Shown: one piece after another, positions 7,688 through 38,976 of the stretch
Position numbering within the stretch: the first letter of the stretch is position 1
Layout of the letters: the number at the start of each line of letters is the position of its first letter
NCBI RefSeq assembly: GCF_900112415.1
Contig: NZ_FOLV01000009.1
Location: 81,768-145,767, forward strand
Origin: Bacillus sp. 491mf
GTDB taxonomy: Bacteria; Bacillota; Bacilli; Bacillales; Bacillaceae_G
Direction: 5' to 3'
DNA: 64,000 nucleotides
Notes under the pieces: model-generated
Told to the model about the DNA's origin: nothing
The model's input: only the letters and a program-made list of their open reading frames with translations
Database searches by the model: none
Translations under genes and position numbers: made by a program

Positions 7688-8986
7688 TTAACGACGTATA
7701 TATTGTTTGAAAGTTCCATTTTCAATAGAAGCAAGAGGAATCGTTTGTTCTGTTCCTTCCTTCATATTTCGTAAAACAGCTACATCGTTATTTATCTCTT
7801 CTTCACCGATAATAAGTACATACGGAATGTTTTCTTTATTTGCATAGTTAAGGGCTCGCTTTAGTTTACGATTTGCCAGTTCAAGTTCTATCTTTAAACT
7901 TTCGTTTGTTCGCAATGTGTGAGCAATTTTTAGACAATTTTCCTGTGTTCCAAGCGGAATAATAAAGATATCGATAGAAGGGGAGACTCGTTCTTTTTGG
8001 ACAAGAGCGGTATAGATGACATCTAAACCGAACGAGATTCCAACTGTTGGATAAGATTTATTATCATTTCGAAGTGCACCGATAATGTAATCATAGCGCC
8101 CCCCACTACCTATGCTAGAAGTAATACTGCCATCTGCTAAAAAAATTTCATAAATCGTTCCAGTATACATTGTGAGTCCTCTTGCAAGAAAAGGAGAGAA
8201 CGTTGTATTACGTTGAATGCCAAGTGCCACCAAGTATTGCCTAAGTTCTTGAAGTTCAGTAACTCCTTCTTTAACAAGAGAATTTGGGAACATTTTATCA
8301 AATTCAGAAAGTGGCATAGACATACATGTTTCTAACGTCTTACATAACATATCAATCGTTTCACTTTGTATTTCTCGATTCATTAAATCATTTCTTACAC
8401 CGTCAATACCGATTTTCTCAAGTTTATCTACAGATAAAATAACATCTTGTAACTGTGATTCAGGGATTTGAATTGCTTGTAACAACCCTGTTAATAGTTT
8501 TCGATTATTATATTGAATGGTTACGTCTAAGTTTAATTTGTTAAAAATGTCAAGAGCCATTACCATTAATTCTGCTTCTGCTAAGATAGATTCAGCGCCA
8601 ACAATATCGACATCACACTGTACAAACTCTCGAACTCTTCCTGGTTTAATTGGGCCATTACGAAATACTTTCCCAATTTCATAACGTTTAAAAGGGAGAC
8701 GAATTTCTGGATTCATTGCGACGACTTTTGCAAAGGGAATGGTTAAATCATAACGCAATGCAAGTTCACGATTCCCTTGATCTTGAAGCGTGTACATCTC
8801 CTTTAAAATTTCAGATCCTCCCCCGTATTTATAAGCCATCAAATCATACATGTTCAAAATAGGTGTTTCTAGCGGTTTGCAGCCATAGGCCTCAAATATT
8901 TCTTCACAAGTCCGTTTAATTGTATTGCGCAGCATTTGTTCTTCTGGTAAATAGTCTTTTGTCCCTTTTACATTTTGCAAGTTCAT
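7688..8986 (-). CDS. hisS: histidyl-tRNA synthetase (second-copy type)
   Basis: 432-aa class II aminoacyl-tRNA synthetase charging tRNA-His. Visible are the N-terminal KGTKDYLPEE, motif 2 with FRNGP.KPGR.REFVQCDVD, the histidine-specific RGLTMYTG and the motif 3-like GSGGRYDYIIG, then a C-terminal anticodon-binding domain. RGLTMYTG argues for a true HisRS rather than HisZ. ATG 8986 has AAGGAG 8 nt upstream; the GTG at 8995 is too close to that site. Most B. cereus-group genomes also carry a hisS next to aspS, and the isolated position here suggests this is the paralogue. It is preceded by a 200-nt leader with a His-rich leader peptide and an attenuator (9013-9220). It is convergent with the lipoprotein gene. 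Confidence 0.93.
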   Translation of the reverse strand: MNLQNVKGTKDYLPEEQMLRNTIKRTCEEIFEAYGCKPLETPILNMYDLMAYKYGGGSEILKEMYTLQDQGNRELALRYDLTIPFAKVVAMNPEIRLPFKRYEIGKVFRNGPIKPGRVREFVQCDVDIVGAESILAEAELMVMALDIFNKLNLDVTIQYNNRKLLTGLLQAIQIPESQLQDVILSVDKLEKIGIDGVRNDLMNREIQSETIDMLCKTLETCMSMPLSEFDKMFPNSLVKEGVTELQELRQYLVALGIQRNTTFSPFLARGLTMYTGTIYEIFLADGSITSSIGSGGRYDYIIGALRNDNKSYPTVGISFGLDVIYTALVQKERVSPSIDIFIIPLGTQENCLKIAHTLRTNESLKIELELANRKLKRALNYANKENIPYVLIIGEEEINNDVAVLRNMKEGTEQTIPLASIENGTFKQYIRR

Positions 8987-9012
8987 ATTTATCACTCCTT
9001 TTTAAAATAAAA

Positions 9013-9112
9013 AAAGCTATGCAGGTATGAAAATACCCACATAGCTTTATAATCGCTTCGTGGGTAAACAGGAATAGCCCTGTACCCACGAAGAAAAAAT
9101 TTCTTCGGATAC
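9013..9112 (-). promoter_or_regulatory. transcription attenuator of hisS (alternative stems and terminator)
   Basis: Read on the minus strand, five segments can pair alternately. Segment 1 (9112-9101) pairs with 2 (9095-9082): GTATCC with GGGTAC and GAAGAA with TTCTTC. Segment 2 (9093-9079) pairs with 3 (9072-9056), including 11 bp of CTTCGTGGGTA. Segment 3 TACCCAC (9066-9060) pairs with 4 GTGGGTA (9040-9034). Segment 4 (9048-9033) pairs with 5 (9028-9013) to give a 16-bp terminator stem followed by seven T. Pairing 2:3 frees the terminator, whereas 1:2 permits 3:4 and blocks it. The canonical T-box sequence (GGTGGNACCGCG) is absent. Confidence 0.82.
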
Positions 9113-9118
9113 AAGGCT

Positions 9119-9163
9119 TTATGTATGATGATGAAGTTGGAAAGAACAATCTATTCTAAACAT
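9119..9163 (-). CDS. histidine leader peptide of hisS
   Basis: A 14-codon ORF, MFRIDCSFQLHHHT, with AGGAGAG (9177-9171) 7 nt before its ATG, lying between a promoter and the attenuator. Codons 11-13 are three consecutive CAT codons, and the stop is 7 nt before attenuator segment 1. A ribosome paused on the His codons leaves segment 1 free, favouring 1:2, 3:4 and read-through. A ribosome reaching the stop codon covers segment 1, favouring 2:3 and termination. This is the classic his-leader logic known from enterobacteria, here placed before an aminoacyl-tRNA synthetase gene. The peptide itself probably has no other role. Confidence 0.82.
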   Translation of the reverse strand: MFRIDCSFQLHHHT

Positions 9164-9191
9164 AAGCAATCTCTCCTATAGATTTTTAAGT

Positions 9192-9220
9192 AGTATACTA
9201 CGAATTATTGGAATTATCAA
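9192..9220 (-). promoter_or_regulatory. sigma-A promoter of hisS
   Basis: On the minus strand, TTGATA (9220-9215) and TATACT (9197-9192) are separated by exactly 17 nt. The predicted start near 9185 gives a leader of about 200 nt containing the leader peptide and attenuator. Confidence 0.8.
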
Positions 9221-9450: not shown

Positions 9451-9487
9451 ACAAAACCTGTCTCATCTATTGAGACAGGTTTTGTTA
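9451..9487. terminator. bidirectional terminator
   Basis: ACAAAACCTGTCTCA and TGAGACAGGTTTTGT form a 15-bp perfect stem with a 5-nt loop, overlapping the stop codon of the YbaK-like gene on the minus strand. Confidence 0.85.
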
Positions 9488-9958
9488 TGAAGTAATGGAA
9501 GTAGGTGTTGCGTTACTAATTTTGATTAGGTCGGCGCCGTTCATAAAAATTTGTAATCCTCTTTTTCCAGCACTAATGCTAATTGGGTCTAAATTTGCAG
9601 CAGATTCGTCAATAAAGAGTGGATAAATTTTTTTCATGCCAAGTGGTGAAACACCGCCGCGTATGTATCCTGTTAATCCAAGTATTTCTTTCATTGCAAC
9701 CATTTCAACTTTTTTATTTTTACTTGCAGATGCTAACGCTTTTAAATTAAGCTCTTTATGCGAAGGGATACAAGCCATAATTACCCCGGTTTTATCGCCG
9801 CGAAGGACGAGTGTTTTAAAGACCTGTTCTAATTGCAAATGAACTTGCTCAGCGACATGTTTTGCATCTAAGTTTTCTTCATCCCATTCATATTCGTGAA
9901 CTGTATATGCAATTTTGTGCTTATCTAAAAAACGACAAGCATTTGTTTTACTACTCAT
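9485..9958 (-). CDS. YbaK/EbsC-type Cys-tRNA(Pro) deacylase
   Basis: 157 aa, family-typical length. It contains the central Lys region KTLVLRG, the SHKELNLK block and the conserved GYIRGGVSPLG loop that mark the YbaK/ProX trans-editing proteins, which hydrolyse mischarged Cys-tRNA(Pro). The reading frame is open upstream to 10141, but AAAGGAAG 8-12 nt before ATG 9958 and the homology to other N termini (MSSKTNACRFLDK) fix the start. It is divergent from the RraA-like gene. Cytosolic. Confidence 0.9.
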   Translation of the reverse strand: MSSKTNACRFLDKHKIAYTVHEYEWDEENLDAKHVAEQVHLQLEQVFKTLVLRGDKTGVIMACIPSHKELNLKALASASKNKKVEMVAMKEILGLTGYIRGGVSPLGMKKIYPLFIDESAANLDPISISAGKRGLQIFMNGADLIKISNATPTSITS

Positions 9959-10077
9959 GTTACACACTTCCTTTTTTATTTCTTCTTTATTAGTATACAA
10001 AATTTCGCCAATTAAGACAGGGAAAAGAAGAAAGGACAAGAATATGTAACATAAATCGTGAAAAGGAAAGAGGGAAC

Positions 10078-10560
10078 ATGATGTGGAGAACAACTGATCT
10101 TTATGATGCGAATGAAACAGAAGTACAAGTATGTAAGCCATTACTTCAATCGTATGGAAAGAAGAAGCAGTTTCATGGGAAAATCGAGACAGTAAAGGTT
10201 AAAGATGATAACGTACTCGTAAAAATGGCGCTAGAGATGGTACCAGAGGGAACGGTATTAGTTGTAGATGGAGAAGGTTCAACAAATTGTGCATTACTTG
10301 GTGATAACTTAGCAAACATAGCAAGGCAGCGGAATTTAGCAGGCATAATTATTTATGGATGCGTTCGTGATTGTGCGGAGCTTCGGAATATCGAACTTGG
10401 CATTTTAGCGATTGCAACGATGCCAAAGCGAAGTGTGAAAGAAGGGAAGGGAGAAACAAATATTCCAGTGTCTTTTGGCGGAGTTTCATGGATTCCAGGA
10501 AATTATGTTTATGTTGACGAAGATGGTGTAATTGTATGTAAAACAGAAATTCATCAGTAG
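10078..10560 (+). CDS. RraA-like protein / HMG-type aldolase family
   Basis: 160 aa, matching the ~160-residue RraA family throughout. Recognisable are TTDLYDAN near the N terminus, [18 protein letters not shown] and the ligand-binding [11 protein letters not shown] segment. In proteobacteria the fold either inhibits RNase E or acts as a 4-hydroxy-4-methyl-2-oxoglutarate/oxaloacetate aldolase. The R and D of GCVRD that bind substrate and metal in the aldolases are kept. Bacillus lacks RNase E, so the aldolase role is more plausible here. ATG is at 10078 or 10081 after AAAGAGGG. Confidence 0.85.
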
Positions 10561-11223: not shown

Positions 11224-11367
11224 TTCTTATCCAGAGAGGTGGAGGGACTGGCCCAATGAAACCCAGCAACCGCGATGCAGGTGCTAATTCCAGCAGAACA
11301 GTTTTGTTCTGAAAGATAAGAAGGAAGAGATATAATCCGCTTCTTCTTATCGAAGAGGTTTTTTTAT
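11224..11367 (+). ncRNA. SAM-I riboswitch (S-box) with terminator
   Basis: The S-box core is clear: CTTATCCAGAGAGGTGGAGG, then GGGACTGGCCC, GAAACCCAGCAACC, ATGCAGGTGCTAATTCC and TCTGAAAGATAAG. P1 closes through TTCTTATC (11224-11231) and GATAAGAA (11315-11322). A terminator (11337-11367) has CTTCTTATC (11343-11351) in its 5' side, an exact complement of GATAAGAAG in P1, which gives the usual antiterminator switch. High SAM should stop transcription before the 83-aa gene at 11423. Confidence 0.95.
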
Positions 11368-38285: not shown

Positions 38286-38532
38286 CCGCCAAAGGACTTT
38301 AGCGGAGCATTTCAAAAATAGCCACCCCATCATACCTTCCGTTAAGATAGCGCCCCACGTTTACACGGTAATTTTGTAAACGTGACAGTTCTGTTCCTAT
38401 TCGAAAACAGCCCCAGCATATACTTCCAGAGAAGAAGTATAAACTTCGGCAGCTTTTCCTGTTATCTAGAGTTATTGACGTTCTCTGTGTCTCGTCTAGA
38501 TTACTAATAAAAGCCGCAACCTCTACCTCATC
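38286..38532 (-). ncRNA. lysine riboswitch (L-box) with terminator
   Basis: On the minus strand the conserved L-box segments occur in order: GAGGTAGAGGTTGCGGC (38510-38530), GAAAAGCTGCCGAAG, GGGGCTGTT, ACTGTCACG and GGGGCGCTATCTTAACGGAAG. An intrinsic terminator CCGCTAAAG/CTTTGGCGG (38286-38305) with eight T follows, directly before lysP. High lysine should therefore stop lysP transcription. Confidence 0.95.
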
Positions 38533-38976
38533 GGATTGATGAGGATTTTTCTATTACTATGATTTTTAATATATGGCAATTGTAATGATTTTCTGAAAAT
38601 AGTGCAAGGATTTTTTTATAGAAATAAATGGCTATTTTAGAAAAGCGCTTTCAAAATTCATCCCGTCCTAAAAAAAGTATGTATGAAATAACCTCCTAAT
38701 AAAAAAGGTTATACAATGGTTTCGTAAAATGTTTCGAAAAATCCTTCAAAATTAATAGAAAATTCAGACAAATATTTTTCGACAAATCTATTGAGATGAA
38801 ATTTTTATTACTAAGAAGAATATAGAATGCTCTTTCTAGAAAAAATCCTTTATTCTTCCAATTAGCATAATTTTTTCATTATAATAAACATAAGTTGACA
38901 GAGTCTTTGTAATTTTAAGTCACAAGAAAGAATTGAAGTGTAATGTACAAAAAGGACAAAAGTATGGGGTGAGGAG
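38533..38976. other. intergenic with possible promoter and cre-like site
   Basis: Contains a plausible lysP promoter on the minus strand (TTGCCA, 17 nt, TAATAG near 38555-38583) and a CcpA-site-like palindrome AAAAGCGCTTTCAA (38641-38654). No gene or structured RNA was recognised in the rest. Confidence 0.35.

What the first reader, a model, noticed from the sequence alone, without database searches (positions are those of the whole stretch)
9013..9220. Histidine leader-peptide attenuator in front of a Bacillus hisS paralogue
The sequence shows a near-consensus promoter, an SD, the 14-codon ORF MFRIDCSFQLHHHT with three CAT codons in a row, and then segments that pair as 1:2, 2:3, 3:4 and 4:5. 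The 4:5 pair is a 16-bp terminator with seven T just before the hisS SD. The distances fit: a ribosome paused on the His codons leaves segment 1 (9112-9101) exposed and favours 1:2 plus 3:4 (read-through). One on the stop codon covers it and favours 2:3 plus the terminator. Established knowledge: leader-peptide attenuation controls his operons in enterobacteria, while Bacillus synthetase genes normally use T-boxes, and no T-box motif is present here. I am not aware of this mechanism being described for a hisS gene in the B. cereus group; novelty is inference.
Basis: partly seen in the sequence, partly recalled or inferred. Interest (0 to 1): 0.9.

Follow-up and report, generated by a model that had tools for sequence, protein, structure and literature searches.

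The report
Histidine leader-peptide attenuator before second hisS
A tiny histidine-rich reading frame and a set of competing RNA hairpins very probably switch on a second histidyl-tRNA synthetase gene when charged histidine tRNA runs low; the design looks real and conserved, but it was already predicted in print for this gene in bacilli.

Summary
On the minus strand lie a promoter-like site (9220-9192), a Shine-Dalgarno site, the 14-codon ORF MFRIDCSFQLHHHT (9163-9119), four alternating pairings, a 16-bp terminator with seven T (9048-9009), then a full-length histidine--tRNA ligase gene, NF009085 (8986-7688). No T-box matches. Comparison supports His-codon attenuation. A strict scan finds a His-rich ORF plus terminator in 34 of 41 upstream regions of related genes and 0 of 81 others (groups drawn after the leaders were seen, 34 of 46 against 0 of 76 by clade). 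Helices 3:4 and 4:5 change in a compensatory way between lineages, 2:3 at one pair. A model of these leaders also finds leaders before hisZ-hisG. It is not new as a kind: Naville and Gautheret 2010 (PMC2965389) predicted a histidine leader peptide before hisS* and hisZ in bacilli. What I add: the leader occurs also in Brevibacillus, Paenibacillus and Clostridia; the predicted default is read-through; the synthetase groups with DPANN archaeal enzymes; one related leader precedes a different hisS. Nothing was tested in cells. No relative above 61% protein identity was found, so conservation close to the window is untested.

The parts
9192..9220 (-). promoter-like site TTGATA-17-TATACT
   Evidence: 10 of 12 consensus, not above shuffle expectation by itself
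9171..9177 (-). Shine-Dalgarno AGGAGAG of the leader ORF
9119..9163 (-). leader peptide ORF MFRIDCSFQLHHHT, stop TAA
   Evidence: His-rich ORF in related hisS* leaders; translation not shown
9125..9133 (-). three CAT (His) control codons
9100..9118 (-). segment 1, pairs with segment 2 (19 bp, 2-nt bulge)
   Evidence: 1:2 in 96.6% of cells of 18 aligned leaders, too constant for covariation
9076..9096 (-). segment 2; pairs with 1, or as 9093-9079 with segment 3
9056..9072 (-). segment 3; pairs with 2, or as 9066-9059 (plus 9057-9055) with segment 4
9034..9048 (-). segment 4: antiterminator partner (9041-9034) and 5' arm of the terminator
9009..9048 (-). intrinsic terminator 4:5 (stem-loop 9048-9013, seven T at 9015-9009)
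8995..9000 (-). Shine-Dalgarno AAGGAG of hisS*
7688..8986 (-). hisS* (second-type histidine--tRNA ligase), ATG 8986, NF009085/PRK12420
   Evidence: 724.9 bits against a cut-off of 540; one clade with other hisS*, next to DPANN archaeal HisRS

Best explanation
A transcription attenuator of the his-operon type controls hisS*. The ribosome translates the leader ORF. If charged tRNA-His is scarce it stalls on the CAT codons, upstream of segment 1. Segment 1 then pairs with 2, segment 3 is free to pair with 4, the terminator cannot form, and RNA polymerase reads on into hisS*. If tRNA-His is charged, the ribosome reaches the stop codon, which abuts segment 1, and covers it; 2 pairs with 3, 4 pairs with 5, and transcription stops near 9009. 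In terms of the E. coli his leader (recalled) this is segments B to F without segment A, so the predicted default without leader translation is read-through. Shown by sequence: ORF, codons, the pairings, the terminator, their recurrence in relatives and covariation of some helices. Inferred: translation of the leader, sensing of tRNA-His charging, the order of folding, and use of hisS* as a reserve HisRS.
For: Sequence and fold. Leader ORF with SD and His codons in 38 of 38 leaders read (the window included) and in 3 of 7 further Clostridia loci; strict scan 34 of 41, against 0 of 81 controls and 0 of 820 shuffles (sets drawn after the leaders were seen). 3:4: three of seven pairs change on both sides between the window, Paenibacillus P25 and Brevibacillus, and one pair inside the Paenibacillus type (arms chosen by hand). 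2:3 plus 4:5 on 18 leaders: 94.0% of cells paired against at most 58.1% when slid; 6 pairs changed on both sides, 0 of 500 shuffles as high; one of the six is an artefact of the window's misplaced segment 3, and 4 remain without the window. In the window, segment-4 pairing falls from 10.8 to 1.1 between a 14-nt mask at His and a 16-nt mask at stop, 0 of 40 shuffles as large. Canonical hisS in three of these genomes has a T-box. Model R1 finds hisZ-hisG leaders with His runs. The same prediction is in print (PMC2965389).
Against: No experiment. With a 12-nt mask the window's segment-4 pairing does not fall (10.8 to 10.7) and only 17 of 38 leaders drop by more than 2; with the masks, 9 of 19 leaders tested drop by 3 or more. 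The three Lysinibacillus/Planococcus-type leaders move the other way. L120 has one His codon beside two Tyr, L114-L116 have HYYH and L117 HH. Pair 1:2 shows no covariation above shuffles (1 pair, 64 of 500 as high); 2:3 has one true double change. In the 3:4 table one pair of L002 and one of L004 do not pair, L003 has no row, and L004 does not fit the 1:2 arms chosen. Five members of the clade (L015, L155-L158) lack the leader. RNA polymerase is reported to outrun the ribosome in B. subtilis (PMC9226507 and PMC7858274, passages), which strains any coupled mechanism.
Confidence: 0.9

Rival explanations
1. A T-box or other RNA element that binds tRNA-His directly, the short ORF being incidental.
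For: T-boxes precede the canonical hisS in three of four loci examined and are usual for synthetase genes in Firmicutes (established knowledge).
Against: No T-box match in the leader at gathering score or at E up to 10; His codons kept in relatives whose leader sequence differs; the stop codon abuts segment 1 in the window and Brevibacillus and lies inside it in the Paenibacillus type.
Confidence: 0.03
2. A general translation-stress attenuator of the vmlR or erm kind, where any ribosome slow-down on the leader gives read-through, without specific sensing of histidine.
For: Ribosome-stall-dependent transcription attenuation with an upstream ORF is reported from experiments on vmlR in B. subtilis (PMC9226507, abstract and passages).
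Against: Runs of His codons near the stop are the recurrent feature and the genes behind the leaders are hisS*, another hisS and hisZ-hisG.
Confidence: 0.05
3. A constitutive leader with a partly efficient terminator and a chance His-rich ORF.
For: In the equilibrium model several leaders do not switch.
Against: 0 of 81 control regions and 0 of 820 shuffles carry ORF plus terminator; compensatory changes.
Confidence: 0.02

Closest known systems
Histidine leader peptide of hisS* and hisZ in bacilli (Naville and Gautheret 2010, PMC2965389)
   Same: Same gene type (the hisS paralogue of bacilli), same element (short ORF with a stretch of His codons before a terminator), same proposed role.
   Different: That paper calls the duplication recent and specific to bacilli; here hisS* groups with DPANN archaeal HisRS, far from the canonical enzyme of the same genomes, and occurs with the leader in Clostridia too.
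His-operon attenuators of the B. cereus group, Eubacteriales and Erysipelotrichales (Ashniev 2022, PMC9413887)
   Same: His leader peptide, terminator and antiterminator in Firmicutes, including the B. cereus group.
   Different: Described before the biosynthetic operon; 'hisS' does not occur in the main text (supplements not seen).
Enterobacterial his operon leader (Rfam RF00514, number recalled)
   Same: His codons, alternating pairings, read-through when the ribosome stalls on His (recalled).
   Different: No Rfam match for it in the window; the window has five segments and no clear counterpart of segment A.
vmlR leader of B. subtilis (PMC9226507)
   Same: Ribosome stalling on an upstream ORF decides between terminator and antiterminator in Bacillus; reported from experiment.
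   Different: Responds to antibiotics, not charged tRNA-His; different RNA; there stalling prevents an anti-antiterminator.
T-box of canonical hisS
   Same: Precedes a HisRS gene.
   Different: Binds tRNA without translation (established knowledge); no match here.

Membership tests
Leader-peptide transcription attenuator | short ORF rich in codons of the regulated amino acid, with a ribosome binding site | tested here: met
   translation itself not shown
Leader-peptide transcription attenuator | mutually exclusive terminator and antiterminator | tested here: met
Leader-peptide transcription attenuator | ribosome position on control codons and stop selects the structure | tested here: inconclusive
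   the window switches with a 16-nt mask at the stop codon, not with 12 or 14 nt
Leader-peptide transcription attenuator | expression responds to supply of the amino acid through translation of the leader | not testable with these tools
   needs reporter experiments
hisS* / hisZ leader of bacilli (PMC2965389) | His-run ORF and terminator before the hisS paralogue | tested here: met
hisS* / hisZ leader of bacilli (PMC2965389) | hisZ and hisS* leaders alike | tested here: met
   model R1 built on hisS* leaders finds leaders of hisZ-like genes followed by hisG, L143 (E 1.7e-10) and L146 (E 1.9e-5) in other genomes; hisZ by best match below the curated cut-off; the window species' own hisZ was not available
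T-box | match to Rfam RF00230 | tested here: not met
Enterobacterial His leader (Rfam) | match to the Rfam model | tested here: not met
   E up to 10

The most novel reading that the evidence does not exclude
A movable his-type attenuator with reversed default works in bacteria said to run transcription ahead of translation. In its five-segment form, failure to translate the leader gives read-through, so termination needs a ribosome that reaches the stop codon before segment 2 has paired with 1. It would therefore report local transcription-translation coupling as well as histidine supply. It travels with an archaeal-type HisRS and has also been fitted to hisZ-hisG and to an unrelated hisS.
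Probability: 0.4. Interest if true: 0.55.

Novelty: already known. Interest (0 to 1): 0.35.

Why it matters
PMC2965389 states that leader-peptide systems had not been shown outside Proteobacteria and Actinobacteria (ermC aside), and that hisS in Bacillus is known for its T-box. Here single genomes carry a T-box before one HisRS gene and a leader peptide before the other, so two ways of sensing the same tRNA could be compared in one cell. If it works as predicted, it also offers a test of how closely the first ribosome follows RNA polymerase in Bacilli.

Tried and rejected
T-box and other Rfam families: in the whole window only a lysine and a SAM riboswitch, elsewhere, reach gathering score. 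At E up to 10 the leader gives ten matches, all far below family cut-offs; the best by score, trpB at 29 of 59 bits, covers 2:3 and the terminator, and rli33 reaches E 0.00049 at 21 of 46 bits. I treat them as terminator-like chance matches.

Own-genome searches: no genome is held for the window, so the canonical hisS, hisZ and their leaders in the same species could not be examined. Close relatives: best protein identity 60% in genome contigs (80 of 82 relatives kept), 61% in 398 genomes of one class, 58% in 391 of another; plasmids 4 records at 55.6-56.4%; viral contigs none; 25 kb of the window against plasmids gave only short riboswitch-region matches.

Loci not examined: 3 of the 33 matches (G051, G066, G300) came without loci, so leaders were read for 30 of 33. 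A DNA search with the window leader in 21 genomes found nothing.

Equilibrium folding as a switch test: with a 12-nt mask it did not separate states in the window or in most leaders. With 14 nt at His and 16 nt at stop it did in the window and in 9 of 19 leaders, the window counted (0 to 4 of 40 shuffles as large in those nine). 15 other distinct leaders were left out only because my strand look-up failed, and 4 were duplicates. The result depends on the assumed ribosome edge and is supporting evidence only.

Alignment A1 holds 18 of 34 distinct leaders (4 of 38 are duplicates); Geosporobacter L004 and the Paenibacillus and Lysinibacillus types were kept apart. MAFFT placed the window's segment 3 out of register, so the window's 2:3 cells are wrong and one of the six double changes is an artefact; 3:4 was compared by hand-chosen arms.

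Model R1: the 19 strongest matches are training leaders or their duplicates. L144, L145, L147-L151 look like plain terminators, with no His run by eye in the 280 nt printed. Three weak places without loci and the reverse-strand matches were not examined. R1 did not pick out the Paenibacillus- or Lysinibacillus-type leaders. T-box check of canonical hisS: 3 of 4 loci matched; L090 did not.

Full report
What is there. Reading the minus strand: promoter-like TTGATA-17-TATACT (9220-9192), SD AGGAGAG (9177-9171), ORF 9163-9119 encoding MFRIDCSFQLHHHT with three CAT codons (9133-9125), stop TAA at 9121-9119, then segments 1 (9118-9100), 2 (9096-9076), 3 (9072-9056), 4 and 5 (terminator 9048-9013, seven T to 9009), SD AAGGAG (9000-8995) and ATG 8986 of a 432-codon gene. 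The gene scores 724.9 bits against NF009085 histidine--tRNA ligase, cut-off 540, while HisZ models stay below their cut-offs. The leader folds much better than its shuffles (z -6.2, 0 of 200).

Is it more than chance. I collected relatives by protein similarity: 80 loci from genome contigs, 33 of 398 genomes of the class of Brevibacillus centrosporus (loci for 30), 8 of 391 genomes of the class of Geosporobacter and 4 plasmid records (3 opened). In 38 leaders of the hisS* group, the window included, a short ORF with an SD and His codons precedes a terminator. Weaker cases are L120 (one His, two Tyr), L114-L116 (HYYH) and L117 (HH). Of 8 Clostridia hisS* genes, 4 have the leader and 4 (L155-L158) do not; L015, also in the clade, lacks it. 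A strict scan (3 or more His, SD, terminator) passes 34 of 41 hisS* regions, 0 of 81 other regions and 0 of 820 mononucleotide shuffles. The 81 are 74 other genome contigs relatives, 3 canonical hisS and the 4 leader-less Clostridia. I drew the two sets after seeing the leaders; by clade membership the count is 34 of 46 against 0 of 76. Four of the 38 leaders duplicate another over the compared stretch.

Pairings. In 3:4 the window reads UACCCAC/GUGGGUA, Paenibacillus P25 UACCUGC/GCAGGUA and Brevibacillus UGCCUGC/GCGGGCA: three of seven pairs change on both sides. In the Paenibacillus type CCUGCG/CGCAGG (8 of 9) becomes CCUACG/CGUAGG in L117. L002 and L004 each have one non-pairing position in this helix and L003 has no row (arms chosen by hand). 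On the alignment of 18 leaders, 2:3 plus 4:5 is paired in 94.0% of cells, against at most 58.1% when slid, with 6 pairs changed on both sides (0 of 500 shuffles as high). One of the six comes from the window's segment 3 being out of register; without the window 4 remain, one in 2:3 and three in 4:5. Pair 1:2 is paired in 96.6% of cells but is too constant to show covariation (64 of 500 shuffles as high). Segments 2 and 4 resemble each other and both complement segment 3, so they must change together, as a his-type switch requires.

Mechanism. With a ribosome mask starting at the first His codon, RNA up to segment 4 folds as 1:2 plus 3:4. With the ribosome at the stop codon and 16 nt or more covered, it folds as 2:3 with segment 4 free; with 12 nt covered the fold is still 3:4 with an inner part of 1:2, and with 14 nt the minimum also lies below the fold with segment 4 free. 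In one search (12 nt) the window does not switch and 17 of 38 leaders drop by more than 2 pairs. In one search (14 nt at His, 16 nt at stop) segment-4 pairing in the window falls from 10.8 to 1.1 (0 of 40 shuffles as large), 9 of 19 leaders fall by 3 or more, and the three Lysinibacillus/Planococcus-type leaders do not. Without any ribosome the model pairs segment 4 upstream in the window, so read-through is the predicted default, unlike the E. coli his leader with its extra segment A (recalled). Pairings 1:2 and 4:5 are compatible and the full leader folds with 2:3 and the terminator, so antitermination must be kinetic: 3:4 has to form before segment 5 is made. That step is inferred. RNA polymerase is reported to outpace the ribosome in B. 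subtilis, yet ribosome-stall attenuation together with RNA polymerase pausing is reported from experiments on vmlR (PMC9226507, abstract and passages; PMC7858274, passages).

Same element elsewhere. Model R1, built on 18 hisS* leaders, matched 33 of 398 genomes at E 0.01; the 19 strongest are training leaders or duplicates of them. Others of interest are four. L143 (leader MPNTQVKFYIHHHMTRV) and L146 (MIANNFVQVYFQFHHHHRFKGL) stand before hisZ-like genes (best match TIGR00443, 151.8 and 218.3 bits, below its cut-off of 271.65) followed by hisG (192.8 and 196.1 bits, cut-off 75.75). L142 (MSNKKLNCHHHRHHSHCVCTHWKNS, seven His) stands before a HisRS that fits TIGR00442 (340.9 bits) but not NF009085 (227.8, cut-off 540) and falls outside the hisS* clade. 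In L141 a hisS* frame is broken and the His-rich ORF is gone while the 3' half of the leader remains. The canonical hisS of Geosporobacter and of two Brevibacillus genomes has a T-box; the fourth locus searched, L090, gave no match.

Origin of the gene. The rows were picked by similarity to the window, the root is for drawing only, and L007 and L015 have end branches of about 1.2. Still, this does not fit a recent duplication specific to bacilli.

What is known. Naville and Gautheret 2010 (PMC2965389; passages and the whole of section 10) predicted a histidine leader peptide before hisS* and hisZ in bacilli. Ashniev 2022 (PMC9413887; abstract, outline and passages) predicted his-operon attenuators in six B. 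cereus-group species. A 2016 paper (PMC4833913; passages) mentions histidyl-tRNA-dependent regulation upstream of hisZ in B. cereus and relatives, citing earlier work that I did not see. No experimental test of the hisS* leader appeared in searches, which cover open-licence papers only. The finding is therefore a correct rediscovery, with a wider range and a sharper, testable logic.

Noticed in passing
L142:1501-1634: A related His-leader attenuator (leader with seven His) stands before a HisRS of a different branch, near an actinobacterial one in the tree, which suggests the element moved between non-orthologous hisS genes.
   Followed up: partly
L141:1501-1628: In one genome (G272) listed among the relatives of Brevibacillus centrosporus, hisS* is broken and its leader has lost the His-rich ORF while the 3' half with the terminator remains.
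   Followed up: partly
L091 (CP031730.1); CP065518.1: Two 315-kb plasmids labelled Stenotrophomonas rhizophila carry an unannotated hisS*. In CP031730.1 the neighbours are annotated like those of a Lysinibacillus fusiformis plasmid and the frame has an internal stop; CP065518.1 was not opened. The organism label may be wrong.
   Followed up: partly
L007:5840-7266: Paenibacillus sp. P25 hisS* has five internal stops in its frame although its attenuator looks intact.
   Followed up: no
window 11224-11322 (+): A SAM riboswitch, followed by a run of T at about 11359 (by eye), precedes a small protein of about 83 aa with only a sub-threshold winged-helix match (TBPIP, 20.3 of 22.8 bits).
   Followed up: partly
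window 38340-38533 (-): Lysine riboswitch (Rfam RF00168, 128 bits).
   Followed up: no
window 9485-10141 (-): The gene just upstream of the hisS* promoter has an aminoacyl-tRNA editing domain (PF04073, searched as 9488-9955), another tRNA-charging protein beside hisS*.
   Followed up: partly
L120, L114-L116 leaders: In some Paenibacillus-type leaders the His run is broken by Tyr codons (HYYH, FYYH), which might weaken or change the sensed amino acid.
   Followed up: partly
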